Notes under the pieces: model-generated
Database searches by the model: none
Told to the model about the DNA's origin: nothing
The model's input: the letters and a program-made list of their open reading frames with translations, nothing else
Part shown: positions 5,801 to 55,274 of the stretch, one piece after another
Layout: each line of letters begins with the position of its first letter
Numbering within the stretch: position 1 is the stretch's first letter
From: Cloeon dipterum
Taxonomy: Eukaryota > Arthropoda > Insecta > Ephemeroptera > Baetidae
Reading direction: 5' to 3'
Length of the DNA stretch: 64,000 bases
Assembly (NCBI RefSeq): GCF_949628265.1
Contig: NC_088790.1
Span: 11,288,545 to 11,352,544, forward strand
Position numbers and translations under genes: made by a program

Positions 5801-8800
5801 TGTTATTGATTACGCAGAATGCTTTACCCGAAAACATACGATCCAGAGTGAGATCAAAAAGAGCGTTGAACTGGAGCAGGCACTCATTGACAAGATTAGG
5901 CACCACTTGGCTGTTAATCCTAAGGATGGAGAAATGGGCGACTCTGGGCTGAGAAGACACCATGACTCTGATCTCCCAGAGTGGTATTATGCTGTCCATT
6001 TTAATTGGTTTTTGTTATTTTCACAAAACGGCGTGTTCCAAATCCAAAATTCAGGATTTCGGGTTTGAATCATGAGTGTTCTTATTTGAAAGAACAATGT
6101 ATTGACACTATGGACGACATAAAAGCTCTGTTCTTTTAAACTAGAATACTTTAGATTCAAACTATAACCCTGCATTTTTAATCTAATATAATTTTTAATT
6201 TTCTCTTTTCACTTTAAATTACCTGCCTTGGTAGTAAAAATTCATCTTAATCAGAAATTGCTAAGAAATATGATTTGCTACCTCTTTATAATTCCATTAT
6301 TTTTTTCCTAAAATTGTTATATTATCATTATCAGATGATACTCGGTAAGTAACAAAGAATAAATTACAGGGCCACCATGAATGCAGCAGACGAGGGTGGT
6401 TCTTTTGATGACAGTGGTGCCTACCATGGTGGAGTTTTCTACTGTGAAGATGGTCCGGAGAGGGAAAGCCCTTCGCAGACCAGCAAACACAGTTCCGAGT
6501 TGAGCCCAGAGCGGGCGAATGAGGGCCACAAAAACTTAAGAAACAAGGAGGGGGATAGAAGAGAAGAACCAAAGCTGCCGAAGCAAGTTTCGCACGTGAA
6601 GCCTCTGATACCTCAGTTTGAGCAGGAGCAGAGCAGCTTCAAGAAACATGAGAGCGTCAAAGAGCAGCAGCAGTCAGTGAATATTCTGCCCCTGATCATG
6701 GGTGAGAAGTCGATCAGCAATGAAAAGTGGCCTGAGAAAATGGTCGACGACGTGATCAAGGACGAGGTAGTGAAAATCGCCGAGGAAGTGATTCAGCCGC
6801 CCGCCAAGGAGGAGTTCTGGTTCTATTTGGACCCGCAAGGCTTTGAGCAGGGCAAGTTCTCGACCGAGCAAATGCTTGCTTGGACCAAAAGTGGCTTTTT
6901 CCCGCACAACCTGCAGGTGCGAAGAGACAGTGATAATTTCTTCTCGGACATTTGTCGATTTTCTGCCATTTGGGAGCAAGCCAGTCCCGTGCCTGACCCT
7001 GTTCACACTGAGGTAAACTCAGCTTTTAGCTTAAATAAGGGTGCTTCATAATTCAATTGCAGATTCCTTTGATACCTAATGCCTTGAAAAGTGGAAGTCC
7101 AACAAATAATAGTTCTGGCAAAGTGTTTGATAGCGTTCGCGTAGCTCAAGCAGAAATTGCTATGAGACAGTATGAAGAAGCTGAGAGGTAAATTCTTGCA
7201 ATATGTTTATATTTTTGCAACTTTACATTATACGATCTCCTTGGCAGGATTAAACTTGATAGACTTGCTTTCGAGTCTGATGAAGGATATTTGTCACCTG
7301 AGGAGAGTTTTGAGACCAAAAACTATGAAAAGCAAATGATCTGGAACGAATTAAAGAAGGAGAAAGAGCGTAGGGATATGCACAACAGAATGGGTGGAAC
7401 ATTTGCAAATTACGTGCCACTTGATTCATCCTCAGCACCCAGCCTCAAACCGACCTCAGCGTGGATCTCCCAGTGGTAAGTATTTATTAATTTTGTCCAA
7501 GCTGGATAATTTTGAATTTAGTTTCCGTTATAAGGCAACTCTTAATGCTATGTGATATTTCATGTAGATCTAATTCTTAATTGATGCAAAGTGCTCCAGT
7601 TCAATAATTTCACATAAGTATTTAATCAAACAATGGATTCTATAAGTTTCCTTTTAAGTTTTAAAATAAGCTTTTAAAAATATTTTATGATGCTCATTTA
7701 AATAAAGTTGTGTGCAAGGTTTCAATGCTATTAAAGATAACCTACTCTGAATTTATTAGTCTTAAACAATAAATTGACCAATTAAGGCCTTATTAATTTG
7801 GAAAAATATTTTTTACAGGATGCAGAAGCAGTATGCCAAATTACTTAATGGCAAGAAACGCTTCCTGCCTGAGGAGCGGGAACTGCTTATCCTGTGCAAA
7901 CTGCACGAGAAGAAACTAGAACTAGACAACAAAGAGAAAATGGTGCGCGTGATGCCAAATCTGGCTCCTGGTGACTCATGGCACCTGCCTCCTGTGCCCA
8001 GTGTGCCCGAATCTGTCTGGGGCTCGGAACCAGCTGCCGCTCCTTCCCCCTCCAGACTGGTTGACTCCCTCTGGGGTGACTTGGAACCCATTCCAATGCC
8101 CCAATCTGTGCCTACGTCATTATGGAGCATGTCAAGCCCAAATGGATTACCTCAGGTTAGCAGCCAGATTGTTATACTCAAGTCAATATTCAGGTTAAAG
8201 AAAATTATTTTAATTAAATTTTTCTGCTCTTGGTTATATTATGGACTGGGAACTTTTTTGTGAAACTTAAAGGTTTAGACTCATTAGACGATTTTTGCAG
8301 TTCCAGATGATTTTGAGTAAACTTTCAATCGCTTGAAATTGCAAGATTCATGTATATTTTATACTTTCGCTACGGTTGGAATTTCAGTAAAAATTGGCGA
8401 CTGTCTTTTTTCTTTTCACTGTTAATGAAAATGCTGCCAAATCAGGCATTAAATGGCGTATCTATTGATGTTTACTCTGTAAGGTAATAATTATGGAAAC
8501 AATTTTTTTAACATTTGATCAAACCTCTATGACTTTGGTTAGTTCTGTTGAGTGTTATTTTTATCAACTCTAATGGGTAAATACATCTCTTGGGTTTTAC
8601 TCATTAATATTTCATTTTCTATATTGAAAAATTCACATTTATCCAGACAAATAGATACACCTGCTAAATCAAATATGCACATTCAATCATTCATCATTCA
8701 TTGAAAGTACAACTACTTTAAAACCGCAGGCGAGGCACCAGTTCACTGGTCAATTCGACAAAGTCGAGGCAGATGCGCTGGAGCTGGAGAAGCTGGCGGC

Positions 8801-11800
8801 CGAGGCTACAAGTCGGCGCGAGAGTCACAGGCGTGAAGAAAACCTGCGCATACAGAAGGAGCTGGAAGCGGCAAAGAAGGCCATAGAACTGAAGAGGCTG
8901 GAGGAGGAGAAGCGATTGCAGGAGGAGGCTGAGAAGCAGAGGCAGGAACTTATGATCGCTAGACAAATGGAAATTGAGCTAGAGAAGGAAAGACTGCGGC
9001 TGGAACAGGTGAAACAAAGATAAGTAATGAAGGTCGTTCATGCTATTAGTTAATTTTTACAGGAAATCCAAAAGAAGAAATTAGAAGAGGAGGCAGCAGC
9101 CGCTGCAGCTGCTGCTGCAGCAGCGATGCGACAAAAAATGGAGTTGGAGAAAAAGCTAGCTGAGGAGGAAGAAAAGAGGAGAGAAACGGAGGAAAAAGAG
9201 AAGAAAAAAGCCAAGAAGTAAGTTGAGAGGGAAGGTTTCTAGTTTCTAGATAGTTTCCTTTGACAATTCCATATTTGAAACTTAAATTAAGTAAAACAAA
9301 GACGCTAAAAACTCAGTAATTCTTGCTGTTGTACAAATTTTCGGTGCATAGATGATTTCTGCGCCAAAAATAGTTATTATTAATATTAGAGTATTTTTTA
9401 AGAAATATGGAAAGTTAAAATCTCAAGATGGAGTGGAATATTTTCCCAAGATTTTACAGCCAGGAATATGAAACATAATTTGAAAAAAAAAATTATTGGA
9501 ATCAAGAGAGAAAGAGAGACAACAAAATTTATCCAGAACTCTTAATAGTCTCTCTCGTTTCCAAATAATTTTTCGAATTATATTGAATTTGGAATAAGTG
9601 AATGGCTCTACTCTGCGTGGAAAATTAACTCTCTATGATTAGCTAACAGTGAAAATCTATGAGGAAAATTAAACAGCAAGTTCTTGTACTGATACAGCTG
9701 TTTTGGCTCCGCAGACCTCATTAGCAGTAATACATCCAAAACTTAATTCATCAGCTGGAAAGTATTTAACAATCAGCGATCGTCAGAAATGTCTGGCTTT
9801 ATTTTGCACTGAAAAATATATTAACCATCATTAGCGTAAAACCTATAGTGGCTCTATAATGTTATTTAGTTCTTCATTTATTCTAAATGACAATGATTTT
9901 GAATCTCGGGGATTTGTTTATTTTGCTAATTTTGTTAAGGCATTCTCGGGAGTGTCAAAGCAATGGGAGATATTTGAGCAGTTCGGAGATCTAATACTGG
10001 CCACCCAATGTCATAGATGGCAAAAATTGGTTAGTGTAGTGACTCGATGAAATGCTCAAATTGCTCAACGGGCTGGGAGGCGCACCGGCGCCGACTCGCT
10101 ACTTGCTGGTTTGCACTTTTGCAGCATGCGTGATTTGGCTTCACGGGACGAATGTCTAGCGTTTCAATGCAGTCCTTGGTGCGGAGGCATGTGGCCCTTC
10201 AGTGGGCTGGGTCCCTGTGCGGCCTGGTGCGCCCATGTTAACCGTTCGCGGTGTTATTGGGACCCGGGCTTCAGCTTTCGTGCTAGTGCAGTGCGCGCCC
10301 TTCCCGGTCCTCGGACAGGGTAAAAAAGGGCAAAAAATATAAATTTATTATCAACGAAAAGAACTTGTCTTTTAGTGCTCTTCTAATTTAAAATCTAATC
10401 TCGTTGTTGAAGTGAGCCTTCTATTTCCAGAGCCCAGGAAGAAGCACTGAAAAAGCAGCAGCAGTTGGCAAGAAAGAAAGAGCTGGAAATGCAGAGCGTG
10501 CAGCAGGTGGAGGCGCAGCAGCGGCAGGAGCAGTTGCGGAAACAGAAGGAGCTGCAACTTAAGCAGCAGCAGGAACAGGAGTTGCAGCGGCAGCTGGAGA
10601 TTCAGCGGCAGCAGGAGATGCGCAAGCACCTTGAACTGCAGCAGGAGCAGCAGCGCAAGAAGCTGGCCGAGGCGAAGGCGGCGAGCGCCAAGGCGAGCAA
10701 GGTTGCGCCGTGGATGCAGCAGGCGGCCGGCATCAAGAACTCGGTCACCAGCCTAGCGGAGATCCAGAAGCTGCAGAAGGAGGAGACGCAGAAGGAGATG
10801 GCTGCTGTTCAGGAGCAACGCTCCAAACTGCAGCAACAGCAGCAGCAGAGTTTGTTTGCCGAGGAGCACATGCGCCCTTGGGACGGTGCCAACCAGAAGA
10901 TAGCTCAATCCATGCTCAACTTGCAGCAAATCCAGGAGGAGCAGGTTAGTGTGGAGTTAATTTTTTTAAACTAAAAATTAATGAGTCGCCTAACTCTGCG
11001 TGGAAATTAATTTAGGATGGTTAGCTTTTAGTTAAATTTTGAAAGGAGAAATAAATACCATGCTCTCGTTCTGTATAGCAGCTGTTTTAGAACCTAACCT
11101 TTGAATGTCATCTTGCTATACTTTAATTTTTAGACGAAATGTTTTCTGGTATTCAAATTTCTGTGCAATGTTACTTGCATGTGGATACCTTCTTGATTGG
11201 GCCAATTCCATTAGGAACTATCCCCATTTAGGTGTAATGCAGGAAATCCTAGTGAATTGAAAGATGAGCTATCGATGATTCATTCCTGACAACTTTACCG
11301 CTGGTTTTGTTAGCTCTCAGTGTGTCTTAATGTTTACGCTTGCACTGCCAGCAAGACCTGTAGTTCTGTCAGTTCATATTGTTTCTAAGCGTTGGGATCA
11401 AAATATTTAGAACTCAACGTTTAAATTTAGGCACAAAGCACGATGCAATATTGACGTCACACATGAATCATTTTGGTTTTGGCGATTTGCCTTTGCTCTT
11501 CTCAGAATTTCATCTTGAAAGCTGACATTTCACAGGCTAATGCCATTTTTTCTTTTTCATTCGAGATGAAAGCAACTACTAATAAATCTGATTTCCGGCT
11601 TGGCAGTTGATAGTAAAATGTTCAATTTGCAGAAGAAAAGCCGTACAGAGCTGACTGTGGAGCGGCCACCGCCGGCTGTGCCTGCGCCCGTCGCCAACCC
11701 CATCAGCAACATGTGGAACTCCGCCTGGTCTCAAGCGCCGCCCCAGACTTCTGGCATCTGGGGCCAGAGCGTGACCTCTAAGGTCATCGCCAAGCCAGTC

Positions 11801-13557
11801 CATTCCACTCAGCCTGCACCCCAAGTGTCCGCCATGCCGGCCAGCATTTGGAACGCAGACCCTGAGCCAGGTACTTTTTTTCATTTCTATCAATCCGAAA
11901 ATAAATTATATTTTGCTAAAATAACTCAAATTTCATGTAGACTAACGAAAATAAAAAAGTCATAAACTTGAAGCTAATTTCACACGTTTGCGCGGGAATT
12001 TTTGGAACGATGCCATGGCCCATTATGATAGATTATTGTAAAATAGTCATTTAAACAAACTGCGAATTTCCTTTGTTGGAGTTGGAAGATTTTTAGTCAG
12101 GTAAAAGAAAAAATTTCCACCTCCAACTTGTAATTAAATTTTGTACTCCAATTTGTCGTAAAATATTGCCTCAACCTGAATTATCTTCAATTTTTTAAGA
12201 TTTGCTTGCTCTTCAAGTGTGAAATTTTTCTCTTTTCAGCTCAAAGTGCACCGCCTGCTGCTCAAAAGACAGCTCCGGCAAATACAGCCGCGGCTAAGAA
12301 GAAGACCAGCAAGAACAAATCAAAGAAAGAGGAGGCGCAAGTCATGAAGATTTTCGAGTCGAAAAAATGCTCGGATGATTTCACCTCATGGTGCGTTCAG
12401 TCATTAAGTGCCCTTGACTCGGACGTCGACATCGACAGTGAGTTTAAATCAAAACAATTTATTTTCCCCTCCCTCACTGATACGGCCCCTTTTGTTCTTG
12501 CAGTCCCCACGTTTGTTAACTTCCTGAAGGACATCGAGTCGCCCTTTGATATCAATGACTATGTCCGCTCCTACTTAGGAAACGGACAGGAGGCGAGGGA
12601 ATTTGCCAAAAATTTCATCGAGAAGCGCTCTAAGTGGCGTAACTCGCAGAAAAAGTCTGTGGCAGCCGACGACCTGTGCAAACCTGCACCCGCCGTCAAC
12701 CCCATGGAGAATGATTTCCTCGAGGTCAAGGTACGAATTCAATCATAGGAAAAATGAATTTCCGAGTTATCTGTTTGATAATATTTATGAATGTTTAATT
12801 ATGCACTAAACTTGTTGTGTCACGTTCAAATATTCAAACATTTGCATGTTAAATTTTTTTAATAAGCTCAAGCTTCATGATTCCGTGGTTTAAATCCATG
12901 AAAATGTATTTCTCGGATTTTCAGTAAACTTAAGATTCAGAAGCTCAAACAGATTGAAATTACATAGCACACGCTTATTTGATGTTCCCATGTTGGCTTA
13001 AAGCCAGTAAAAAATTGCTATAGTCGTTAGTCCACACCCCCTTCATAAAAATTTAGTTTCTTTCCTGTAGTCAAATATTTTATTGCAGATTCCGACATGT
13101 CTAATGACGATTTGAGTCACATTTTTTCAATCAAACGTTATTGCTAATATTTTCACATGACTAAAAATGAAACTAAGAACATTTTGATTAATTGTGTCCT
13201 GTAATATTTTAGATTTTGTACGTCAAAATCGATACTTGAGGTATTATTCTGGACGATATTCTGGACGAAAAATGACACATTGGTCGATTCATTAGGCCAA
13301 ATTTCATACCTTCCACTTTTAAGAAGATATAAAAAACTTGCTCAAGAATTGACATTTAAATCAATTTAGAAACAATATTAAAAACTTAAGGTTCAAGTCT
13401 GGAAAGTTATGAACGATTATTTTTGTTTTTGCAGGGTAAGGTCAAGAAACCCAAAAAGAAGCAGATGACCAAGGTGGACAGCAGGATTCTTGGCTTCAGT
13501 GTGACCGCAGCTCCAGACAGACTGAATGTGGGCGATCGAGACTATGGTGAACAGTGA
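2822..13557 (+). CDS. GIGYF: GIGYF, GRB10-interacting GYF-domain protein (4EHP partner)
   Basis: Family role: with 4EHP (eIF4E2) it represses translation and recruits decay factors to mRNAs. Nineteen coding exons keep phase throughout: 2822-2853, 2931-3162, 3216-3317, 4351-4506, 4561-4753, 5417-5549, 5601-5714, 5771-5983, 6370-7012, 7063-7187, 7248-7475, 7819-8155, 8730-9008, 9063-9217, 10431-10944, 11633-11870, 12240-12437, 12504-12730, 13435-13557. They give about 1413 residues (human about 1300). The N terminus has LKFGPEWLR and the 4EHP-binding motif [11 protein letters not shown]-rich repeats follow in exons 3-4 and LPEW ends exon 8. A divergent GYF domain lies near residues 540-590. Exons 13-15 encode a long Glu/Lys/Gln coiled coil. 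The C-terminal helical domain contains [20 protein letters not shown], and the end is [14 protein letters not shown], all as in human GIGYF2. Individual junctions near introns 3 and 5 are the least certain. Confidence 0.95.
3711..4045 (+). repeat. SINE-like dispersed repeat, copy A, poly-A tailed
   Basis: About 300 bp in GIGYF intron 3 is nearly identical to 10027-10330 and related to part of 57310-57545. Shared landmarks are GGTTAGT(T/G)TAGTGACTCG at the left, GGGCTGGGAGGCGCACCGGC, GCGTGATTTGGCTTCACGGG, and a shared 3' block ending TTCCCGGTCC. It ends in a run of about 18 A. TAGTxTAGTGAC resembles a pol III A box, and GGTTTGCACC a degraded B box. A tRNA-derived SINE is inferred. Confidence 0.75.
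9218..9929. repeat. GIGYF intron 14 left part: imperfect inverted repeat plus shared block
   Basis: Between about 9465 and 9600 two arms are roughly complementary: AAATTATTGGAA...GAGAGAC on the left and GTCTCTCTCGTTTCCAAATAATTT on the right. The loop is about 25-30 bases. Just downstream, about 9612-9712, a block starting CTCTGCGTGGAAA and ending CAGCTGTTTT recurs in the next intron at about 10994-11090. This looks like an old fold-back element or repeat remnant, with no coding content. Confidence 0.45.
9930..10335 (+). repeat. SINE-like dispersed repeat, copy B, longest copy
   Basis: It lies in GIGYF intron 14. The right part (10027-10330) matches copy A closely. The left part, from about 9930 (CATTCTCGGGAGTGTC, CAATGGGAGAT, TCTAATACTGGCC), matches copy C at about 57208-57300 but is absent from copy A. 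Copy A is therefore probably 5'-truncated. The 3' end is A-rich (AAAAAAGGGCAAAAAATA). Confidence 0.75.
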
Positions 13558-15030: not shown

Positions 15031-16753
15031 GTAAGCGGAACTGATTTCCTGCATTCCTCGCGAACTAGAGCTCCGCGTGATTAGTTTTGATTGACGTGTG
15101 GTAATTATTTTTTTATAACATTGAGGGGTTTAATTTGATACAATTTTGAGGAAAACGTCAGGTTGAAGAAAGATACTACAGGAAGTTACAATTTCTGTAT
15201 TTTGTATTTCATGAATTTTTTAAATTTTAAATAATAATTATTCCGATCAAAAGTTTGTCTTTAAAAATGCTTAAAATCCTCTGATATGATGATGTTTTAA
15301 TAATATTTTTATTCTCTGTAAAATTACATTGCTGGTTGCATAATCTTGGACAAATCCATGAAGCAATTTATTTTCCTAGTTATTTTTTACAACATAAAAG
15401 TTTTTGTGCCGGCTTAAGTTCTTATTTCTTAGTCCATGAATTCGGTTGCGCGTTAAATCGCAATTTCAACTTAATTTCAACATACTTGAAGGCAGGTGCA
15501 CTATATAGATGTATTCATAATTTTAATTTGAAATTATAGGAGGAGCTTCCTCAGTTTTTTTTTTTAATTTTTGCATGCATCTACAGAGCATGCAGGACAA
15601 ATCTGTAAATAAACATGGAATGATAATTGCTCGAGAAGCATTGGGTCTATTTCAACCGAAAAATGTTTTAGACTATGTTAAATTCTAAAATAACCAGTAA
15701 GGGAATTTTGGAAAATCTTTAAAAAAACTGATTAAAAATATATAAAATTATTTGTGCTTGGATTGGTTTTCAAATTTTAATCTGTGACTAAAAATGTTTA
15801 CTCTTGAATTCATTTTTAAGAGCAATTTAAAAAATGTTTTAATCAGCAAAAGTTATTTTGACTTATTTACGCAAATATTTAGCTTTGCGCCTTTACGTGA
15901 AATGTTGTACTAAATCTAATAATACGTTGAAGCAACACAGTAGTGAGAGAAAACGAAAAGAGGCACTTTCGTGGGAAATAAACAACGCGCAGTTGATGCT
16001 GTAGGTATTTTGCTCACAACGTCGTGTTGCAACGAATTATCTGCATTTTGCTTGCCTTCCGCGCAAAAGCACATGCAAAAGAAGCTAGGCAAATTACGCG
16101 CGCCCCATGCATAATCTTGTCCATCCTGCCGCTTCAACAATCAACTTCCCGTGCTTCAGACACAATTTATTGAATAATAAGGACAATTGGTCTCTCCTGA
16201 GAGTTCTCTCACATTTGACTCGGGTTTTGTAGTGCGGAGTACGGACGACCTTGGGTGCGTCTTGCTCGGCTCACTCTCAAGGGTCAATTAAAGCATGCAT
16301 GCTCCCACTCGAATTTTGCAGGTTCAATTGGATATTAATCTGATTTTCAAGCACCACTCTATTTGAAATATAAAGACGGCGGCCTGCTCATCAATTTTAA
16401 TTGAGACTTATTAGCTCTGATTAGTCCTTATTAAATTTGTTTACTTCACTTCTCCCTTTGTCTCTGATGGGCCACTTATTCGGTTGGTCGGTGACGAAGT
16501 AAATCTGAAGGAAGTAAAACAGTATAAGTATGAGGTTCGTTCTCATTTTTAAATTTCATTACTCAAAGTGGAAGGAAAGGATTGATATTCCCATAATTTT
16601 GCAAACAGGATTTTACAATACACTAGATTTCCCGTACAATAACCGTTAATAAATTTTGCAAACAACTTGATTAATGACATCTACATTAAATCTGTCTCCG
16701 TCTCGATAAATTTATTTCTCCAATAACGTGACCCTTTTGTGGTATTTTCGCAG
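15031..16753 (+). other. Probable 5' UTR intron of the HOPX-like gene
   Basis: AT-rich sequence between a candidate donor at 15031 and the acceptor ending at 16753. Open frames are short, overlapping and unrecognised. Nothing coding is supported. Confidence 0.4.
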
Positions 16754-16805: not shown

Positions 16806-19800
16806 ATGAGTTCCTCCTCCGGCTCAATCCAGTCGATGTCGCCGCCAAACATGTCTCCGCAGAGGAACGTGATTCAGATCACCGCAGAGCAGTGGGACGC
16901 CCTCGAAGCGCAGTTTGCCAAAGTCAAGAACCCGCACCCTACCGACCTAGTGCTGCTTGCAGCCGAAATCGGCCTCGACGAGTCCGACGTGCAGGTAAAA
17001 AAAAAAAAAAAAAAAAATAACCAACCCCCTATGAAGCAATCAAAGCTTTTATAGTTGATTTTTGTCTATCCCAAGAAGTTTATACTTTCATATAAAAATA
17101 AGTAATATAAACTATTTACCATCGGTAGATATCCGCTTGATATCAAGTCGAAAATTTAAAATTACTCTATGATTTGATGCCTAAATTTGTGCCCCCTAGA
17201 AATGGAAAAAGCCACGGAGTTATGTTTGAAATCGAATCACCCTTTTAAATCTTTTGAGGCACTTTTATATCTAAAAATTTATTAGATCAGAAAGATTAAA
17301 CGATTTTTTTTCATAAAACGTCGCTTGGTCGCTTTGAAAAATAAATTGATTAGTTGATTTCCTGTGTAGTTTACCGCCCCAGGAATAAAGCACGACGTGT
17401 ACGGTGTAACTTTTTACTAACAGATAAAATAACCGACGTAACATGTACTTTCAAAGCTCCCCGCGGATAAAGTGTTACATAAATGCATCGCACAGTCGAG
17501 TTGCTCAAGAACACATTTTTCTATAGTACAACAAGGTAAATCAATGTTCCGGAGAAAACAGCTAGAACATTGACACGAGGTGAGACGCAAAAGCGATAAG
17601 ACACATGCATGTTGTCTCTATTTTTTTCTCTCCCAGCCTGGCGCCGGTGCATCTCGATTTCCGTGATATCTGCGGTTGACTTTCGATACAAATACTCAAT
17701 TCGCTGCTGTCACTGCAATTATAATACGAGGATGTACACACACATATGAAATTTATTCGCGCACGTACGACCGCAGCCAAGCATACAACACATGCGGATC
17801 GCGTTTCTTCCTCCTCTCCTCTGCGTTTGCATGGCGACTTTGTGCTCTCCGGGCTCTTGGCAAAAGTTTTTTTCAATTTGTTGCGTGTGTTTCTGCGGCA
17901 CTGAGACTTAACTCTCTTTTACACAAGTGCACCGTGAAAGAGCTAGCGCAAACAACAAAAACAGAGCACCCGCCGCCGTCGCCATCCGCGTGTCTCGTTC
18001 TTATTCAGCATGATTTAAACCTTTGACTTTCGAATGACCTCTGATTTGTGTCAAAGTTTAAAAATCAGAATTTCGTTCTTTATAACTTTATTTTCCAGTC
18101 TGTAAAATATCCTCTGAAAATTTTAGAGAAAAAAGCAAGCAAAAATTCATATTGCTAAGGAAATCAGGAATAATTCTTTGGTGTTTTCGTGGAAACACAA
18201 TTTTTATGCATTTACTGTCGGTCAAATTATTTAGTAAATTTAACTATGACAGTTCTAATCTGTAAATTCTAAAATGGACAAAGAATAAAAAGGAAATTGG
18301 GAATACTTGCCTTGCTTGAATAATAACAATATTATTTAATTTAATTATTAAATATTAAAATAAAATTAGCGCTTCATAAGACCATCTTGTAGTAATGTCT
18401 CTGGTTGATTTTGCAAATTTAATATCTTCTCTTTGGCGCCTCAGCTAGAATTATTATTCTATAAAGAATTAATTATTTTTTATCTTTGGAGCGTGGTTTA
18501 TTTCTGGCCAAAACGATTGCCGCCCTTGAGCTTTAGGCTTGAAACAAACCAGACACTCTCTCTTTGAAATTGAAAAAGAGCTCCCCCTTCGCAGCACTTT
18601 GGACTCGTTTTTCGTTCCCACCGACAGATTTTATCTGCGTGTGTCCATCTCGTTTGAGAGTGAAAATATGAAAGACGCCGGCCGCTAACTCCAAACTATC
18701 AAAAGTGCAGGCCTACTTTTCCGAAAATTAATTCCCACGCGTTTTATCAAGATTTTGAGCAATTTTCAAATAGACACTTTCACCATTATTGTTTGCACAT
18801 CTCACAAGCTTTGTGGCTCCTCTGACGAAATGTTTGCTCTGCGCGCCGACGACTATTATTTGTTACCGCGCGCGACGTGGCTAATTATCGCTTCCGAAGC
18901 CAATTTGCGATTATCTCTGTGGAATTATACTGTTTCGTCCCGCTGGCTGCCGAGTGAGCTCTCGTGGCTGCGTGTTGTGGGCGGAAGAACGATAATAATT
19001 GACACAGCATATATTCAACTTGTCGTGCCCGCGGTTATCTGCAATTTTTATCGCTGCCTTATAGTAGGTTTGCGACACTTGAACGGACAAGGACGTTTCT
19101 GCACTTCAACATAGTTTTATCAGCTCCGAATGGAAAATTTCGCATCGCAGATTTGAACTAGTAGATTATTCGATTTACAATCGTCGGCTGGAGTTTAAAA
19201 CTAGACATTATCTTCCTACAGTGACTGAAATGGAAAGAAAAAAACTTGTTTGACACATTATTATAAAAGGCGATAAAGAGCACTAAACATTTTAACAGCC
19301 GTTAAATATATAATGGAATAAATGAGAAAACCCCTATCGTTTGGAATATTTATTCATATATAGAATAAAAAATACCAAAGAGAACATTTAAAGCTGAATG
19401 GTAACTTTCGTTACTTAAAATAATCCTTTTTAGAATTAATTTGAACCCTACTTTAAACGGTCAATAATCCTTTAGGTTTAATTTAAATACCAAAATTGAC
19501 CAAGAAAGAGTGAAAATTTCGACACAAATTTTTTTTTTTGTTAATTTGTGAGCTAGTATTCCCTGTCTCCCTACTTCGAAATCTTAAATTAAATTTAAAA
19601 AAGGAGTTACTCCATCGTACGACACACATCAATGAATAAATATTGTCGAGGGAATACGAAAATTGTTATTAAAAACGGTCAATCTTTTTTTCTGAGGCTT
19701 GATGTTACTCTGGAGTGTGAACATACTGGAGATATATTTTCATGATCGCTTTTTACTAAATCCGAATAAATTTAAATTGCTGCCCTGCTATGTCATACCA

Positions 19801-22800
19801 ATTTTAACACAAAAGTTTTAATCTTTCGAGACAACGAGGCAAAATATATTGATTACTATTAGCTAGACTAGAATCAATCAAATAATTTGACAAGCCTCTG
19901 TATAGTTCGATATGCTGATAAAACGACAGCGAACCTTTAAGAAAGTCGCAGTTTAAAAGAGAACTTTTATTTGGTCCTTGGAATCTCATGTTAACGAGAG
20001 TCTTTTGATTCACGCCGCACGCACTTTCCAGAGGCAAGATTTGCATGATTTTCATAGAAATCTCAGATCGTCCCCGCGTAATGGCTGGAAGGGAATTATT
20101 TGAGTGTTAAAATTCTGGTTTAGAAACCGTTTTCTGGTCAAATTGTTTCCCGTTTAGTGAGTTCATTCTCAATTATCGGCCCTGCAGGCCTCCTTCTTTC
20201 TTTTTCTGATAGCATAATTACGTCCAAACAGCGGTAGCACGCGGCCGCGTGTTTTCTTCCTCCGATATTTATTTTATAAAAGCCTCTCTGGTAATTGCTC
20301 ATTTACCTAAAAATATAGGCCGTCTGGCGAGTCGTAAAAGACATAAATTATATTATCGAGAGGAGTAGTCGCTCTTTCTCGCGCGCGTACGGTAAATATC
20401 ACATAAAATGTAAATCAGCCGCACGACTTGCTGCTCTCCGCATATGATTTTCAACTCTGTAATGGCGTTTCAGTCCAGTTTAATCGGGGAAAATAACCGC
20501 TGGCCTTTGATTGAATCAAATTATAGATCGGAATTTTCTTGTTTCCTCCGATTATATTTATTTGCAAATTACACCTCTTTCAAAAAATTAAAAATAGATA
20601 TATGCAGAACGTCAGTTTTTTATTTTAAAAAATAAAATGAAACCTGCAGAAGTTCAAGAGCTGTTCAAAATATTGGCAACAGTGGATTATTTTGTAACAA
20701 CTTTATTTGAAGATAGTTTCAAGACTTTCAATGGACTCAATAGATCAACTTTGGCTCTAAGTTAGTTTTCCGCCACCCCTGCTATGATGAACCAAAATTT
20801 GAAGTGATATTTTTGCTGAAAGACACGACGTGCTGACGTGCTTTAATGACACGCGTCCCAAAATTATCATTTTTTTTTAAATTTAATTATCACTTCACAT
20901 GAACTCCACTACGATAATGAGGAATGAGAGTGCAAATACTTGTGAGATAAACCAATCAATAATTGGTACGTTTTCCTGACCGCGGTGGTAAAACTACTAA
21001 AACACTGTCTCAAACTGCGAAAGTAAACGTTGATTTCTAAATTTCATATTTTCTGTCAAACCCGTTATTCATTAATTTAAAAATTAAACATTATTGGTAC
21101 AGATACCAAATTTCAAAAGTGTCCGGTGTAACCTTCCGTGCAAACGAGCATTGGGGGAGCGAATCGATCTGCAGAATGCGTTTACGTAATATAGCCTAAT
21201 TGTAAGAAAAATGTGTGCCAATTTGTCTGTATGCGCTCCGTATTGGCTTCCCCCTGTTAACGCGAAGAGACACGAAAAGAAGAACTACAACAAGCACATG
21301 GACACGAGAGAGCGAAACTAGATTCAATTACAGGCCGCGACATGTCAGTGTGAAATATCAAACCGACGCCCTTTATGTCTCCGCCGCGCACGCGGCGCCG
21401 CACAAATCGCGAAACTGGGACGAGAAAAAAATCGTCTCAAGCCGTGAGCTTCAAGCACGCATCCAACTTTGACGAACTAGTGTTAATGCGACGGGAATGA
21501 GATGATTGTGATTATGGGACGCGAGCTGACAGTGAGAATAAAATTAACGAAAGTGCGTGCCCGTGAATATGAAATTAGATAGTGACACTCACGCTTTACA
21601 ATCAACAAAGCGGCTGCTAAAAGGATTACAATCCGGTGCATAACGGAAATATTAGACTGCAGTAAGAAGTGAGAGTTATCAAATCAAACTCAAATTTTAG
21701 CAAAGGATATAAAATATCAATTTTTTAAGAGCTTGATATATATCTTAGAATACTATTAAGTGTGTGTTAGTTGCTGGAAAAGTGTTTTTATTTGTTAATT
21801 TTTCTGAAAATTATTTTTTTTTCGGAAAAAAATAAAATATTTTTTCGCAGGAAAATTAATGATGTTAGAGTTAAAATGAAAGAAACTCTGGTCCGAGACT
21901 GCTAGAATATTTATCCAGCTTGCAAATGAAGACAAGCCCATAATTTTAAAAATGCAATAAACCGCTTCCCGCTTTACGCCCAAAATAAACACATTTAAGA
22001 ATGCAAATATTATCTAGCCACTCATAAGTTTCGCTACACATGTAGGGGGACAACAAATCTGCCTCAAAGGCAAAATTTACAGCCGCGGAGATAAAATTCA
22101 GTTCCCTTTCATGTCTTGGCTCTGCGACGCTACAAGCATAAAGCCCGTAAAACTTTCCCGGTCCTCATCTCTACGATTGCTGGCTGGAACACTGAGAGAG
22201 CAGCAAGACTTTGAGCTTTTCTTTTCTTCCGCAGGCAATAAACTCACAGAGCGGAGACGGAACTGGGGCATTCGGTGAGCCGCAGTGGCAAATTATAATA
22301 ACGCGTGTGTGTTTAGTGTATTGCGCACAAATGCTGCAAGCCACACAAATTCATCTCCAAGTCTGGGACTGAAATTCGCCGCGCATTCTATTTCGGAGCG
22401 CAGAGAGAAGATGATGGCGCAGAAACACCCGCGCTCGTGCCCGGCAGCAAACGTCGAAATTTATAAAAGGGATGCATAAATATAAATATGCACATATATA
22501 TACACACGTTACGGATTCAAACAAACTTGACGTCCGTATAAAAATAGAGTCAGCGCTTGAGATGTCGGCGTCTCGTTGAGAGAGAGACTGCTTCAAAACA
22601 AACTGTTGCGAAAATGATGGAAGAGGGTGCATAAAATGTGTCATAAAAGCGCCACGCTTTGTGGTAATCAGCACAGAAGATGGGCTTCGTTGCAAATTCC
22701 CAGAAGGCTGAAGTGGCAAGGCGGTCTATTTTTTATTTTAGTAAATATCAAGATTGCAAAGCTTTAGAAAGTGCCGTTTAGATGAGGAATCAAAATAGGC

Positions 22801-23216
22801 GCGGGGCAGTGTAGATATAAAGACACAAAATGCGGTTCAGAAATTAAATAATGCTGAATAATTTATTGCCCTCGCAAATATCTTGAAGAGAGGAACTAGA
22901 ACCCCTTTAAAAATGGTCAAAAGTGCTGAGAATTTTGGAGGAAAATACACACCAAAGATTTTGTCAAAAAAACAAATCGATATTAAGTTCTAGATCATTT
23001 TGTATCACTTTTTTACTTTTGATTTGCCTTGCCTTGCCCTCTTCTTCCCCTTGACCCTAACTGATCCTTGCTTTCGTAAAAGATTATTGAGCGATTCAAT
23101 GATAATGTTTTTGCTCATTAATATTTTTCAAAATGTTTCAGGCCTGGTACACGCAGAGGATTGCAGCCTGGCGGAGGTCTCAGGGTCTCACCCCCTATTC
23201 AGGAAGAGTCGACTAA
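16806..23216 (+). CDS. HOPX: HOPX-like homeodomain-only protein
   Basis: Two coding exons, 16806-16994 and 23142-23216, join in phase to give 87 residues (human HOPX has 73). After a Ser/Pro-rich N terminus the protein is one homeodomain. Helices 1-2 carry EQWDALEAQF, KNPHPTDLVLLAAE and GLDESDVQ. Helix 3 is AWYTQRIAAWRRSQGL, against KWFKQRLAKWRRSEGL in human HOPX. The position equivalent to Asn51, which contacts DNA in ordinary homeodomains, is Gln, as in HOPX. By family knowledge HOPX does not bind DNA and acts through partners such as SRF; the role here is inferred. The ATG at 16806 is the first in the exon, which probably begins at 16754. The intron opens with GT followed by 21 A. Exon pairing rests on homology and phase. 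Confidence 0.85.
16995..23141 (+). other. 6.1-kb intron of the HOPX-like gene
   Basis: The donor GTAAAA is at 16995 and the acceptor ATGTTTCAG ends at 23141. The A run 16997-17017 starts inside the donor. The rest is AT-rich, with CpG-bearing patches near 17.6-18.0, 18.8-19.1, 21.2-21.5 and 22.2-22.7 kb that could be regulatory. Open frames in these patches overlap on both strands and match nothing I know. Confidence 0.5.
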
Positions 23217-31600: not shown

Positions 31601-34600
31601 ACGCGTCCAGCGATCGCTTCGTGCTGTCCAAGGGACACGCAGCTCCTATCCTCTATGCTGGTAAGTGCTGAGGTAAAATTTTAAGTCTCGTAGCATTTTT
31701 CAAAATTATTTTTATTTTTTTTTTAATTAAGAGCAAATAAAAATTTAATATTAAGCTGCTTTGATAATTAAAAGCATTTCGAGCTGAAATATTTAAAACC
31801 TTGAATTTTCAGTATTTCATTATCCTGAAATATAATTTAAACCACGTATCATGTCATGGAAAGCCACATATTTTGCAATCACGTGGATAAAATAAAAATC
31901 TCCACACAAATTAATATGAGTATAAAGGCAGATCACTAAATTTTTGTCATGCTTTTTATTCCAGCTTGGGCTGAGGCTGGACTCTTCCCTGTGGCTGATC
32001 TACAGAACCTGAGGAAGATCGACAGCGACCTGGAAGGTCACCCCACCCCTCGTCTCAACTTCATCGATGTGGGCACTGGCTCTCTTGGACAGGGCCTGTC
32101 TGTGGCCGCTGGAATGGCATACGTCGGAAAGTACTTTGACAAGGCGTCGTACAGGTAAGATAACTGCGATTAGGCAAAAAGCCTTCATTTCTCACTAATT
32201 TAAAAAATTAATTTCCTTGTATACTTAACTGGAAGTAGAGAGTAACGGGATTGAAAACTTTGTAATAATTGAATACTAGAGGATTGTTCAGATAGCAGTA
32301 ACCGCAGCAACAATTTCACTAGAATTATTGCCCCTTCTGTTTTTTCTTTGAAAAAGAATTATTATATTATTTTCTTGAGCAAGAAATCGACTTGGGAGGA
32401 AGCGGTAAAAACCAGAGGTGAAACCAGCTGAATTGTAACTCCTGATAGAGAGTAATGAAAATATAATGTTGGCTTGAATTAATTTTTAATTTGATTTTCT
32501 AATTAAATTTGATATTTTCGAGCAAATGAATCTGGATTGATTAACGCTTCGACTGTAGGACCTACTGTCTTCTTGGCGATGGCGAGAGTGCTGAGGGCTC
32601 TGTGTGGGAGGCTCTGCACTTTGCCAGCTACTACAAGCTGGACAACCTGTGCGTCATCTTTGACGTGAACCGCCTGGGCCAGTCTGAGCCAACTTCTCTG
32701 CAGCACGACATGGAAGTCTACCGCAAGAGGCTGGACGCCTTCGGCTTCAACGCACTTGTCGTTGATGGCCACGACGTTGAAGAGTTGACCAAGGTATTGC
32801 TTTATTTACAATTAAAAAGGATGATTGACTCATGAATATTTTCCCAGGCTTTCCATGAGGCGTCAGTCACCAAGGGCAAACCGACTGCCATCATCGCCAA
32901 GACATTCAAGGGCAGGAACTTCCCCAAAGTGGAGGATGAAGAGAACTGGCATGGAAAGCCCCTTGGAGACAAGGCTGAGGCTACCATTGAGGTGAATGCT
33001 GTGATGAGATGTTGAGAAATATAACTTATTAGTACATATTTGATCTCACGTTCAATGTAAATCCACATTTCACATATGTTTATTTCTTTTTGAATCAGTG
33101 TTCCGAGTTTTATCCAACCGGTTTAATCCATGGTGGTTTAAACCACCCTATTTTAGCCGGCTTTATTCTGGCTTTTTTAATTTTTCTCACAGCTTATAAA
33201 AAATCCACAAATTTGTTTAAAAAATAGTTTTTTGTTGCAGCCAAAAAAAGCCAAAAAACCGGATTAAGCCGGATACAATCCGGATAAAACCACCTTGTTT
33301 TTAAAAAAGCAGGCTTTTTTGGAACACTGTTTTGAATTGATTTTATTTTTTTTCTCAAATAGAAAAATGCATGTTCTGGGAGAATTAAAGGGAAATGAAG
33401 TATTAATTACTAATCATCTCCATTTCAGCACTTGAAATCTCTGATCAAGAACGCTGGGCCACTGCAGCTGCACCCGCAAAAGCCCCTTGTTGAAGACGCA
33501 CCTGCTACCGACATTAGCAACATCCAGCTCTCCTCCCCGCCCAACTACAAGCTGGGCCAGAAGGTAGCCACCAGGGAGTCGTACGGCGTGGCTCTGACCA
33601 AGATTGCAGAGAATAATAAGCATGTGATCGCCCTTGACGGTGACACTAAGAACTCCACCTACTCGGAAAAGATCAAGAAGGTCTCCGCCGATCGCTACGT
33701 TGAATGCTTCATTGCTGAGCAAAACCTTGCGGGAGTGGCCATTGGTGCCGCCTGCAGAGGCAGGACAGTTCCTTTTGTCTCTACTTTTGCCGCTTTCTTC
33801 ACCAGAGCCTTTGATCAGGTTATTTTTAATTTGAATATAACCTTTGAAAAACTAACGCAATTTATTGACAGATCCGAATGGGAGCCATCTCCCAGACGAA
33901 CGTCAACTTTGCTGGCTCGCACTGTGGCGTCTCCATCGGTGAGGATGGTCCCAGTCAGATGGGGCTTGAGGATATTGCCATGTTCCGCACTATTCCTGGT
34001 ACGTTGGAAATTAAGTCAGACAAAATATTAAATTTCTCTCATTAACTGCATTATTTTCAAGCATATTATTAATGGCATACCTTGTTTTACAGGAGCCACC
34101 GTGTTTTACCCCTCTGACGCAGTGAGCTGCGAGCGAGCCATTGAGCTCTCTGCTAATACTAAGGGCGTGTGCTTCATCCGCACTTCTCGACCAGCCACTG
34201 CCGTTATCTACCCCAATGACACCATCTTCCAGGTGATTTGGTCGAAATTTTAACCCTAAATGTCTCACCTGTGGGACATTTTGAATTAATTAGCTATAAC
34301 TAAGTTACTTCGGAAGGTTTTAAATGGATCTTAAAGTAGAATTTGGTAAGTTTTATTTTTACTTGACAATCAAATTTGAATATGACAAATTTAAAGCAAT
34401 GATACCTTGGTTGTATTGACTATTGGTAACATAATATAATGTCGTATATTTTCTTTTCAAATGATACTAAATTAAAAGGAAATGAGAAAAAATATTGGCA
34501 AAATTTTTCAAATGATTTGGTGTAATAAACAAATCCCCTGAAAAATTATTTCAAATTCCTTTCATAAAAGTTAATTTAGTTGTAAATGAGCATTGATGCT

Positions 34601-35089
34601 ACCAGAAAGGTTCAAACTAGTGTTAAATTAGTTTTGTAGGTAATTGACATCAGAATTTATTTTAATCTTGTCTGTTCCCCTCATTTTCAGATCGGCAGAG
34701 CCCACGTGGTGAAGAAGTCAAGCAAGGACACCGTGCTGCTTGTTGGTGCTGGAGTGACCTTGCACGAGGCTCTGAGCGCTGCAGAGACCCTCGAGAAGAG
34801 CGGTGTGCACGCGCGCGTGCTGGATCTGTTCACTGTCAAGCCCATTGACCAGGCTGCACTTGTGCAGAACGCCAAAGAATGCGGCGGACGTGTGGTCACA
34901 GTCGAGGACCACTACCCCGAGGGTGGGATTGGCGAGGCGGTGCTCACTGCGCTGGCTGATGAGGCGGTCAAGGTGAAGGTGCTGGCAGTTCGGGAGGTAC
35001 CGCGCTCGGGACCACCAGCGGTCCTCATTGAAAAGTTCGGCATCGGCGCCAACAGCATCGTCGGGGCGGTCAAGGAGATCACCGCTTAA
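28561..35089 (+). CDS. Tkt: Transketolase
   Basis: Thiamine-diphosphate enzyme of the non-oxidative pentose phosphate pathway, moving two-carbon units from ketoses to aldoses in the cytosol. Common exons: 31515-31660, 31965-32154, 32559-32793, 32848-32991, 33429-33818, 33872-33998, 34093-34232, 34691-35089. With first exon 1a (28561-28667) it is 625 residues; with 1b (30578-30678) 623; human is 623. Conserved features are GHPTSC at the junction of exons 1 and 2, [11 protein letters not shown], the ThDP/Mg motif GDGESAEG starting at residue 154 followed by [14 protein letters not shown] with the catalytic Glu, [38 protein letters not shown] and [14 protein letters not shown]. All junctions keep phase. 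It converges on blue cheese, 1.4 kb away. Confidence 0.96.
28668..31514 (+). other. Transketolase intron 1 region containing exon 1b
   Basis: Apart from exon 1b and its leader at 30445-30678, this holds no exon I can support. Open frames at 28738-29097, 29196-29468 and 29831-30094 lack ATG or family resemblance, or overlap others. A CpG-bearing patch lies near 31.1-31.3 kb. Confidence 0.4.
30578..30678 (+). CDS. Transketolase alternative first coding exon 1b
   Basis: The exon encodes [20 protein letters not shown] then [14 protein letters not shown]. It ends GG|GTACAA, also phase 2. It parallels exon 1a along almost its whole length, with RIHSI and NASKSG shared or similar. A GC-richer leader (30445-30577) precedes it, suggesting its own promoter. 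The frame stays open upstream but contains no ATG. Mutually exclusive use with 1a is inferred from homology and phase. Confidence 0.8.
33096..33329. mobile_element. hAT-type MITE (234 bp) in a transketolase intron
   Basis: The ends are CAGTGTTCC on the left and GGAACACTG on the right, a perfect 9-bp terminal inverted repeat. It is flanked by an identical 8-bp duplication, TTTTGAAT, at 33088-33095 and 33330-33337. The CAGTG end and the 8-bp target duplication are typical of the hAT superfamily. Subterminal AACCACC and GGTGGTTT, and repeated CCGGATT/AGCCGG motifs, form further inverted pairs. No coding capacity, so it is non-autonomous. Confidence 0.88.
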
Positions 35090-36465: not shown

Positions 36466-39400
36466 TCATTGCGATTCCACTGAAGCTGATCTGAGCGTAG
36501 CGTGACACCCTTGGCATACCCGCACCGGCTTTAAAATGCGTAACCGTGAGATTTCGGACTCAAATTTGCTGCACCTGAAACAAAAGGTTGTCCTTAACTT
36601 TTTATCAAATAAGGGGCTAGTGTCACACTCACTTGGAGCAGAAAAGCTGGCCACAGTTTCTGCAGTGGTGTCGCCTTTCGTAAAGACTGAATTTGACGCC
36701 GCACCCGACACAGCTCTCAGCACCCTCGTCTTTTAGCCAGTGGTCGGCTCGACCAGGCTGCTCGGCCATGCTCCATGAAAACACTCTCCCTCTTGCGTCT
36801 CCTACGTACATTGTGCGATGGTCTCTGGAATAACCCAAAATGGTTTATAAGCAAAGATAGTCGGAACAAGTAACAAGGCGAAAAACGTACTTGGAAACAG
36901 CCAGGCAAGTGATCGAAGCTGGCTCTGCATTGTCCTTTCGGTCGTATGCTGTATGCATGGTTAATTTGCTTCTGAACACCAGCTGTCGTTGCCATTGAAA
37001 GCCTATGAACAAACATGAATACTTTCGTAATCCTACACTTCATTGAACATTCTCATCATACATATAATTATAATCAGGTGTGTTCTGATATTGATAGCAT
37101 GCTAAGTGTACTAATTTGTTTCGACTTGTGCTTTTTATCATGTGCCAGTCAAGCATATTTAAGTGCACATTCCTTATATATTTCAATCGTCAAAATTGTC
37201 TCTCACCTTCTCGAAGCACGTTCTGATTTTTCCTTCTAACTTGACTCATCTCAGAGGGAATCTCAGACTCGCTGACCATCACGAAGGAGTCTGTGAGGCT
37301 AGTGTCGCTTTTACTCGTGCGCATGCTGTCCCCAGAGCATGACAGCGTGTTTGGATTGTTAGTTTTGGACTCTGTTGTACTGCTACTAGTGTCCTCTCGG
37401 CCCTCGCTATCCGACCGCACTCTGCCGCTTAGACTCATCAATCCAGCTAGTCTGCTGCCTTCACTCTTCCTAAAGGCCGGATTGTGTGAGGCGCTAGGCC
37501 TTCGGCGCACCACAACCATGGATTCTTCGAAGCTGCCTCCGAGTGGTCTCTCGACTTCTTCTACGTCGATGGTCGGCAAAGCTTCGGATGCAGTTTCATC
37601 TTTTTTGTCTTTGCTTTCGTCTTCGTCCTCAGTTAGACTACTTTCCGAACCGCTCTTCACCAAAATCATTCCATTTTCTTCAGTGTATTCGCCAGACAGA
37701 CTCATTTGTTTGACGAATTCTTTCACGCGGTCATTATCTGGTAGAGTTGCTGATTTTTCTTCTTCTTTTGTGTCTTTTGTCGCCTCACTTTTCTCAATGA
37801 TCTGCTGCTCAGGCTCTTCCTTTGGCACTTGCACGTAATCTATTGACCACATCCTAGCAACTCCATCAGTGGAACCAGTCATAATGACATTTTGAGGGTC
37901 CCATTCATTCGCCTGGGAGAACGCAACGCAAAGAATTTGCTGCATGCGGTCGGCTCTGCCTACGCTGGTGTCCACGCATGCTAACTCAGTACCGTTGATT
38001 GTCCACACGTGGAGCCAGGTGCCAGCGCACGTTGCAATGTCTCCTGTGACCTCATTGATAGCTACAGCCGCGACGGGCGCTGAATGACCTCCAAGCTGCC
38101 TCACGAACATGAGCCGCGAGAGGTCCCAAATGATCGCCGTTGCGTCGCGAGATCCAGATACGATGACGTTGTACGCAGGGCTTGCAGCCAGGCAGGTTAC
38201 AGCATCTGTGTGTCCGTACAGATTTTGCTTCACTCTCATCTGCTTTTTTTGGTATTCCCAAACTGTCACAATTGTACTGGTTCCTGCCGTAATGACAAGC
38301 TTCGCATTAGGGCACACGCAAGCTACCACTTCTCCGTTTTGCGGAGCTTCGCAAATGAGAACGGCTTTGTCGTTGTCATAATTTCCTATTCGCAGACTGT
38401 GGTCGGCAAATCCCCAAGCAACGTATTTGGTGTAGTTTGGAGGCATTAGCGATTTGTTCTGCTCGACTGCTAAGACTTGTCTATCGTGTTGTAGAATTTG
38501 GCCGACTGGAGCTTTTAGTTCTTTTATCGGTGTCAACGATGGTCGTAAATTATCAAGTCCGTGGAAAAAAAGACCTGTGGTGAGGTTGACTGTTGGTAGC
38601 AATTGTCCAGAATCAAAGATGGAAGACGTTCTGTTTGAAGCCACACGTTTCGCTGGATGAGCCTTCTTAAAAAGCTGCTTCGGTATTTGTCCAAAGTTGT
38701 TGATGAATCCAATCGTGGCGTTCTTCTTAAGAGGATCATCTATGTTATATATATCCACGTTTCCTTCGTAGAATAAGTGATGAAAAACATTCACAGATTC
38801 AACCGCTCCTTGGCCTTTCTGTTTGCATCCAAATATCAGGTCAATCCACTCGTGCAAATGAGCTGAAACATATTCGCACTCGAGGGCTTGTCGGTGTACC
38901 CTGATGAACTCCAGCGGGTCATCCTTTGCCCATGGTGGAAGAATCACGTCACCTAAATGTACACCATTCTGTTTGGCACCAAGATCAAAGTTATTTGAGT
39001 TCTGCAGAAACTCTGGTAGATAGAAGAATTCAGGAATTAGTTCTTTGACATCAGCCATGTTGTGCTTTGAGGCGGATGTCCATGCCTCTTTAATACTGTG
39101 GAACATTCGATCAGCTAAATCAAAGTGTCCTCCTTGAAGCCGGAGAAAGTGCTGCGTGAACGGTTCCATGCGTACCAAATACGAGCAGACAATCATTGCT
39201 GAAGAATAATGAGTACCATAATGGTATGGTGGTGTTTCACCGTGGGGGTCGTCCCATTCTCGGTATCTTTTCTTGAACTGTTCCAAGCGGTCAGCACTCT
39301 GCGCACCCATGGGCCTTGAAAAATCTCGAAACGTTTTCGGGTTCGTCAAATCAAGTTCTTCTACATCATATTCGGCCAAAATCCACGGGAATACTGGGTA

Positions 39401-54312: not shown

Positions 54313-55274
54313 CTGCACAAAACAACAAGAAAATAATATCTTTAATTCTTCTGAATATGTAAGAATTATTGATTTTATTTAAGGTGGCGAAATGCTATTG
54401 TAAAAGCGGGACAATATTGAGCACGTTTTTATTATGAATTAAATTTTTTGGTGCGTATACTATATAGACCATTATAACATTTCGGAAAAAAATTGCGCAG
54501 TAATATTATAATGTACCTATGCTGTTTTGGCTGGCCCAGCTGTGTTTTTCATATCTCTGGTTGCCAAGCAAAATTGATCATTGCACAAGTATTGAGTTAA
54601 TTTAATATTGGTTTTCCTTCGATTTAATTACCTACTTGATTGATTATTTATAGCGAAAATTCTTTTATACTTGCTAAAATAGCATAGGTACATATAATAT
54701 AGGGAGATATTAAAAACCGTGCGCCTAGACATTGTTTGGAAATTTCAGGGAGGTGTTCGCTTTCAGTTCGGAGATATTTGACTTTTAAAGAGACGAATTT
54801 TTTCAAATTTTTCAAATTCTGCTTATTTTTTTGACGTGTACCAAAAACCGTCTGTTACATCTGTTTATTAGATTGTTTGAACTTAAATTTAAACAAAAAG
54901 CACTCTGAACTCTGAAAATCTTGAACATAATTTAATATAGAAAAAACCCTCATACCATGCACATTATGAAATCAATCATCGATTCACTCTACATGAATAT
55001 AATCAAAATTTCTAAAACTGTTTTCAGTGCAATTTACGCAAGAAAGTGTAACTTCTGTTTCTGCATTTTTCTCGTGAAATCGCTAATTTGTTCAGCGGAG
55101 CAATTTATGAATTAAAATATTCTGAAAATAATTTTAACTAAATGTAATTGACACGAAAACTAGTGCAATGCATTTTTTAAAATTGATATTATCCTATCTT
55201 TAATCACTATCAGCTAAAGATATAATAATTGCTTACAGATCAGGAATCAACGCATTGTAGGTAATCATAGATCT

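What the first reader, a model, noticed from the sequence alone, without database searches (positions are those of the whole stretch)
16806..23216. HOPX-like homeodomain-only gene in an arthropod-type genome
Two exons 6.1 kb apart join in phase into an 87-residue protein that is essentially one homeodomain. It shows the HOPX hallmark: Gln in place of DNA-contacting Asn51, in WYTQRIAAWRRSQGL versus WFKQRLAKWRRSEGL of human. HOPX is best known from vertebrates, and I do not recall an orthologue in Drosophila. A conserved arthropod member would suggest that the non-DNA-binding homeodomain is ancient and was lost in some lineages.
Basis: partly seen in the sequence, partly recalled or inferred. 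Interest (0 to 1): 0.75.

Follow-up and report, generated by a model that had tools for sequence, protein, structure and literature searches.

The report
Mayfly member of the HOPX family
A mayfly carries a tiny gene for a homeodomain that appears to have lost DNA binding, like the vertebrate heart and lung regulator HOPX, and relatives of it turned up in many insects and a water flea but not, in these searches, in flies, moths or beetles.

Summary
Confirmed. Two exons (16806-16994 and 23142-23216, + strand) join in frame at a GT-AG intron into 87 residues. The product is identical to an NCBI protein named 'homeodomain-only protein-like [Cloeon dipterum]': the genome is this mayfly's, and the gene already bears a HOPX label. 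Relatives occur in dragonflies and kin, cockroaches and termites, a locust, stick insects, Hemiptera, thrips, Hymenoptera and Daphnia; no named fly, moth or beetle appeared. An arthropod-only profile finds mouse HOP first among PDB sequences (77.1 bits; best ordinary single homeodomain 43.9). Arthropod and tetrapod members share loss of Arg5 and Arg53, an unconstrained position 51, low net charge, Ala36-Glu37 and Gly61-Leu62. Cloeon lacks the loop insertion of vertebrate HOPX. A 57-column tree groups HOPX (100/99), but AU tests do not reject alternatives (p 0.078, 0.082), support is weak without DNA-facing columns, and macrosynteny gave nothing. Best reading: a true HOPX ortholog, a co-regulator that does not read DNA. 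A bilaterian origin of Hopx was already published; I saw no paper on the arthropod family.

The parts
16806..16994 (+). Coding exon 1: N-terminal tail and homeodomain positions up to Gln46 (63 codons)
   Evidence: identical to NCBI protein P0001
16995..23141 (+). Intron of 6,147 bases, phase 0, at homeodomain position 46/47; GT...AG borders, run of 21 A just inside the donor
23142..23216 (+). Coding exon 2: homeodomain positions 47-60, Gly-Leu and C-terminal tail, stop codon TAA (24 codons plus stop)
   Evidence: identical to P0001
16754..16805 (+). Possible 5' untranslated segment after an acceptor-like TTTTCGCAG (ends at 16753) just upstream of the ATG; inference only
   Evidence: Sequence read; not tested with RNA

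Best explanation
This is the single-copy mayfly ortholog of HOPX. It encodes a small protein that folds as a three-helix homeodomain but has lost the residues and the positive charge with which ordinary homeodomains bind DNA. It most likely works in the nucleus as a co-regulator that binds transcription factors or chromatin enzymes through protein surfaces, as vertebrate HOPX does with SRF, HDAC2 and EPC1. Shown here: the open gene, the exon junction in sequence, the kinship by profiles, the loss of DNA-contact residues and the predicted fold. Inferred: transcription in the mayfly, nuclear location, lack of DNA binding, and the partners.
For: Mouse HOP is the best PDB sequence match both for the single protein (52.7 bits; Pax6 38.5) and for a profile of 27 arthropod members (77.1 and 74.8; Pax6 43.9). 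A profile of 13 tetrapod HOPX ranks 34 of 34 arthropod members above all 80 other Cloeon homeodomain segments (Cloeon HOPX 67.2 bits, best other 35.4). On exon-1 residues only, which is fair to split genes, Cloeon HOPX scores 39.7 and the best other 19.9, with 33 of 36 arthropod members above that other. DNA contacts, given as arthropod HOPX, tetrapod HOPX, other Cloeon domains: Arg5 0 of 36, 0 of 13, 25 of 25; Asn51 2, 0, 25; Arg53 0, 0, 23. Net charge of positions 2-58: arthropod HOPX -3 to +1, tetrapod median -2, other Cloeon domains +3 to +13. Shared positive features: Ala36 with Glu37 in 49 of 49 HOPX rows, in 0 of 25 intact other Cloeon domains and in 1 of 32 split ones; Leu, Ile or Val at 53 in 49 of 49 against 1 of 25; Gly61-Leu62 in 49 of 49, not compared in the others. 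Intron at 46/47 as in human HOPX (PMC2211742, passages). All HOPX rows lie on one side of a branch at 100/99 and 100/100 on 57 columns. AlphaFold model: three helices, pLDDT block means 76-90 from residue 21 to 80; Foldseek ranks the two HOP structures first and second.
Against: AU tests do not reject trees that put arthropod or tetrapod HOPX separately with PRD-class rows (p 0.078, 0.082). Without the arm and DNA-facing columns (39 of 57 left) the best tree no longer separates the groups cleanly, and 65% of bootstrap trees keep the other homeodomains on one side. Cloeon lacks the one-residue helix I-II insertion. Five markers near human HOPX (recalled) all lie on other Cloeon contigs. Mouse HOP against the unspliced genome hits another homeodomain slightly better (27.0 bits) than the lone HOPX exon 1 (23.4). 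VIA-align 2 ranks ordinary homeodomains on top and HOP is not among its 50 rows, so fold alone does not discriminate. Two aphid members have Asn51. Nothing here tests function.
Confidence: 0.82

Rival explanations
1. Arthropod HOPX arose independently: a different PRD-class homeodomain gene in an early arthropod lost its DNA-binding residues and any other domains and came to resemble vertebrate HOPX.
For: AU tests do not reject it (p 0.078 and 0.082), and support drops when arm and DNA-facing columns are removed; long stem branch (0.94); no macrosynteny; loop insertion absent in Cloeon.
Against: Loss of DNA contacts alone would not predict shared positive features: Ala36-Glu37 in 49 of 49 HOPX rows against 0 of 25 intact and 1 of 32 split other Cloeon domains, and Gly61-Leu62 in 49 of 49. 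Profile scores in both directions are well above those of PRD-class domains, for Cloeon also on exon 1 alone. Hopx in molluscs is already reported (PMC5322547, passages).
Confidence: 0.12
2. The protein is HOPX-derived but still binds DNA or other nucleic acid, weakly or with changed specificity.
For: Trp48 (49 of 49), Arg52 (34 of 36 arthropod, 13 of 13 tetrapod) and Lys/Arg57 (49 of 49) remain; two aphid rows have Asn51.
Against: Arg5, Arg31 and Arg53 are gone in 36 of 36 arthropod rows, Tyr25 too, Lys/Arg55 in 35 of 36, and net charge lies between -3 and +1.
Confidence: 0.05
3. Chance join of two unrelated open stretches, or a dead gene.
For: The intron is 6.1 kb and no Cloeon RNA was examined.
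Against: Exact match to an NCBI protein, conserved relatives with the same junction, intact frame.
Confidence: 0.01

Closest known systems
Vertebrate HOPX (HOP; PDB 1UHS, 2HI3)
   Same: Homeodomain-only protein, loss of DNA contacts, 46/47 intron, Ala36-Glu37, hydrophobic residue at 53, Trp56-Arg57, Gly61-Leu62, low net charge; 27 of 57 homeodomain positions identical between Cloeon and mouse
   Different: Cloeon has no helix I-II insertion, Gln60 instead of Glu60, Tyr49 instead of Phe49, Thr50 instead of Lys50, and another N-terminal tail
Insect and Daphnia proteins, many named 'homeodomain-only protein(-like)' by NCBI
   Same: Same family; Ephemera danica 41 of 57, Blattella 35 of 57, Apis 28 of 57, Daphnia 21 of 57 homeodomain positions identical; several share an N-terminal SxSPxxSP stretch
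   Different: 13 of 36 rows (12 named Hymenoptera, one unnamed) carry a Pro insertion in the helix I-II loop; bee and some wasp models have longer N-termini
PRD-class homeodomains (Pax6, Pax3/7, Goosecoid)
   Same: Fold, 46/47 intron in many, Pax6 the best ordinary single-domain match
   Different: Pax6 keeps Arg5, Asn51 and Arg53 (letters); class members have a DNA-binding function
Lopx (lophotrochozoan-only homeobox)
   Same: Reported as separate from all PRD-class families except the divergent Hopx (PMC6118893, passage)
   Different: Proposed from lophotrochozoans; not compared here

Membership tests
HOPX | Short protein made almost only of one homeodomain | tested here: met
   87 aa; only Pfam match is the homeodomain, residues 24-75
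HOPX | Loss of canonical DNA-contacting residues | tested here: met
   Positions 5 V, 25 N, 31 L, 47 A, 50 T, 51 Q, 53 I, 55 A; of the nine checked only Arg57 is kept
HOPX | Intron at homeodomain position 46/47 | tested here: met
   Exon 1 ends after Gln46; human feature from PMC2211742, passages. Shared with many PRD genes
HOPX | Closest sequence kin is HOPX, in both directions | tested here: met
   Exception: mouse HOP against single unspliced exons
HOPX | Groups with HOPX in a homeodomain tree | tested here: met
   100/99 and 100/100 on 57 columns; weak on 39 columns; AU p 0.078 and 0.082 for alternatives
[quoted passage not shown] not treated here as defining, since one of the tetrapod HOPX rows lacks it too) | tested here: not met
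   Absent in Cloeon and in 23 of 36 arthropod rows; present in 12 of 13 tetrapod rows, absent in Microcaecilia
HOPX | Does not bind DNA; binds SRF and HDAC2 | not testable with these tools
   No biochemistry; Cloeon has a strong SRF-type MADS-box match (74.1 bits)
DNA-binding PRD-class homeodomain | Asn51, Arg5, Arg53 and a basic domain | tested here: not met
   Gln51, Val5, Ile53, net charge -2

The most novel reading that the evidence does not exclude
A homeodomain that does not bind DNA has been kept as a stand-alone protein since the bilaterian ancestor. Residues still shared by insects and vertebrates (Ala36-Glu37 in helix 2 and Gly61-Leu62 after helix 3) mark an ancestral partner surface, and the gene was lost in the non-hymenopteran Holometabola, which is why fly genetics never saw it.
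Probability: 0.5. Interest if true: 0.55.

Novelty: new member of a known kind. Interest (0 to 1): 0.42.

Why it matters
HOPX is usually discussed as a vertebrate gene of heart, lung and stem cells. A conserved insect family would allow its ancestral role to be tested in honeybee, locust, cockroach or mayfly, and would show which surface has been kept while DNA contact was given up. If the loss in flies holds, Drosophila-based homeobox lists miss an ancient gene.

Tried and rejected

Mouse HOP against the unspliced genome gave 27.0 bits for another homeodomain and 23.4 bits for HOPX exon 1. I put this down to the split gene, because the joined protein scores far higher and exon 1 alone ranks third of 116 with a tetrapod profile.

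Rows dropped before counts. The 36 arthropod rows and 13 tetrapod rows are my choice, for spread, among full-length proteins; no fish is among them. The 25 'other Cloeon domains' are intact domains of at least 53 residues out of 80 fetched segments; two more intact ones, of POU and TALE look (L038, L101), were left out beforehand, and both read Asn at 51 by eye. One of the 25 ends at position 54. The 80 segments come from the 101 rows: of the 21 others, one is the HOPX exon itself and 20 were left out as short, gapped or weak.

Paper searches for arthropod or insect HOPX: one search found no paper, the others gave capped listings in which I saw no paper reporting an arthropod Hopx. Two searches on Cloeon led to one paper on mayfly Hox genes, seen as passages, with no occurrence of 'hopx' (PMC9331126). 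Most subscription papers are not in that library. Absence from flies, moths and beetles rests only on named hits (120 of 183 listed; 118 hits, all listed).

One search shows Ala36 alone in 2 of 25 and Glu37 alone in 3 of 25; only the pair is rare.

Full report
Observation. Exon 1 runs from the ATG at 16806 to 16994 (189 bases, phase 0) and is followed by GTAAAA. Exon 2 starts at 23142 after TTTCAG and ends with TAA at 23216. The join gives 87 residues, and an in-frame stop lies upstream at 16707. Pfam sees only a homeodomain (37.9 bits). The protein is identical over its whole length to the NCBI protein 'homeodomain-only protein-like [Cloeon dipterum]', on a contig of 33,197,927 bases. That is the length of contig C5, on which the window lies. 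The organism is therefore the mayfly Cloeon dipterum (order Ephemeroptera), and a HOPX label already exists in the database, probably from an automatic pipeline (inference).

Splicing. No Cloeon RNA could be examined. In a relative, P0018 (1,036-base contig) reads through the junction as ...DVQ-AWY..., while P0110 shares its first 59 residues, up to DVQ, and then continues as intron-like sequence. That fits splicing at the same place, homeodomain position 46/47. It does not prove it for Cloeon.

Family. A profile of mayfly and mouse sequences found 183 proteins, of which 120 were listed; it brought in cockroach, termite, locust, stick-insect, leafhopper and scale-insect proteins alongside vertebrate HOPX. 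A profile of eight insect sequences found 118 proteins, adding Odonata (Hetaerina), thrips, aphids, a psyllid, many Hymenoptera (sawflies, parasitoids, ants, bees, wasps) and Daphnia magna. None of the named hits is a fly, moth, beetle, chelicerate or myriapod (orders recalled); unnamed rows cannot be placed, and both searches scored a capped set of candidates. In the Cloeon genome the gene appears single: the next homeodomain scores 27.4 bits against 125.8 for exon 1.

Orthology. The arthropod-only profile (27 rows) picks mouse HOP first among 177,635 distinct PDB sequences (77.1 and 74.8 bits). The next row, 54.7 bits, is a chain with two engrailed homeodomains of 30.7 and 26.5 bits each. 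The best single ordinary homeodomain is Pax6 with 43.9. A profile of 13 tetrapod HOPX ranks 34 of 34 arthropod members above all 80 other Cloeon homeodomain segments (67.2 bits for Cloeon, 35.4 for the best other). Many of those 80 are split-exon pieces, so I repeated the test on positions 6-46: Cloeon HOPX 39.7 bits, best other 19.9; 3 of 36 arthropod members fall below that best other. The tree on 57 columns with 26 arthropod and 9 tetrapod members and 26 other rows puts all HOPX on one side of a branch at 100/99, with arthropods at 93/91 and tetrapods at 91/29. With 51 rows the same branch has 100/100, arthropods 95/99, and tetrapods are not one clade. Removing 18 of the 57 columns (arm and DNA-facing positions) leaves 39 columns; the best tree then has a row on the wrong side, and 65% of bootstrap trees keep the other homeodomains together. 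AU tests of arthropod or tetrapod HOPX joined separately to four PRD-type rows give p 0.078 and 0.082; all HOPX with those PRD rows is not rejected either (p 0.113). Sequence evidence for orthology is thus good, but the tree alone is not decisive. Macrosynteny gave no support (0 of 5 markers).

What changed in the domain. I compared 36 arthropod and 13 tetrapod members with 25 intact homeodomains of the same mayfly genome, in that order. Arg5: 0, 0, 25. Tyr25: 0, 1, 19. Arg31: 0, 0, 18. Ile/Val47: 2, 1, 21. Gln/Lys/Ser50: 5, 13, 23. Asn51: 2, 0, 25. Arg53: 0, 0, 23. Lys/Arg55: 1, 3, 24. Lys/Arg57 stays: 36, 13, 24. Position 51, invariant in the ordinary domains, shows 13 different letters in the arthropod members (entropy 3.26 bits against 0). 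Two aphid rows have Asn there. Net charge of positions 2-58 is -3 to +1 in arthropod HOPX and +3 to +13 in the other Cloeon domains, without overlap. Meanwhile Ala36, Glu37, Trp48, Gly61 and Leu62 are invariant in 49 of 49 rows, and position 60 is Gln in all 36 arthropod and Glu in all 13 tetrapod rows. The pair Ala36-Glu37 occurs in 0 of 25 intact and 1 of 32 split other Cloeon domains; positions 59-62 were not compared in them. The constraint has moved away from the DNA face, which is what a protein-binding co-regulator would show (inference).

Differences from vertebrate HOPX. Holland et al. [quoted passage not shown] Cloeon has the intron but not the insertion. The insertion is in 12 of 13 tetrapod rows. 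A Pro insertion in the same loop is in 13 of 36 arthropod rows, 12 of them named Hymenoptera and one unnamed. It is a variable trait, probably gained more than once (inference), and I do not treat it as defining.

Mechanism. Vertebrate HOPX binds SRF, recruits HDAC2 and interacts with EPC1 rather than binding DNA (review PMC9179269, passages). Cloeon has an SRF-type MADS-box match. That the mayfly protein uses these partners is inference.

Novelty. Paps et al. 2015 reported Hopx in molluscs and placed its origin at the base of Bilateria with several losses (PMC5322547, passages). A mayfly member fits that. In eight paper searches (listings, one empty) I saw no report of the arthropod family, although the databases carry the name. 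I rate it a new member of a known kind, moderately interesting because it makes the ancestral role of HOPX testable in insects.

Noticed in passing
window 6353-12748 (+): Exons of a GYF-domain, glutamine-rich gene, GIGYF-like (GYF domain at 57.8 bits in 6353-7051; the gene name and the extent to 12748 are my reading of open frames).
   Followed up: partly
window 33414-35089 (+): Exons of a transketolase (pyrimidine-binding and C-terminal domains).
   Followed up: partly
window 37190-46954 (-): Two very long open frames (1183 and 2049 aa, stop to stop) of a BEACH, PH-BEACH and WD40 gene, WDFY3-like by recall.
   Followed up: partly
window 51802-52608 (-) and 53701-54378 (-): Open frames of 268 and 225 aa without a Pfam match at E 0.001.
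   Followed up: no
hymenopteran proteins such as P0126, P0134, P0129, P0158, P0171: A Pro insertion in the helix I-II loop in 13 of 36 arthropod rows, in the loop where most tetrapod HOPX also have an extra residue.
   Followed up: partly
P0136 and P0143 (aphids): Asn at position 51 in an otherwise HOPX-type domain: a natural test of whether Asn51 alone gives DNA binding.
   Followed up: no
window 16997-17017: A run of 21 A directly inside the splice donor of the HOPX intron.
   Followed up: no
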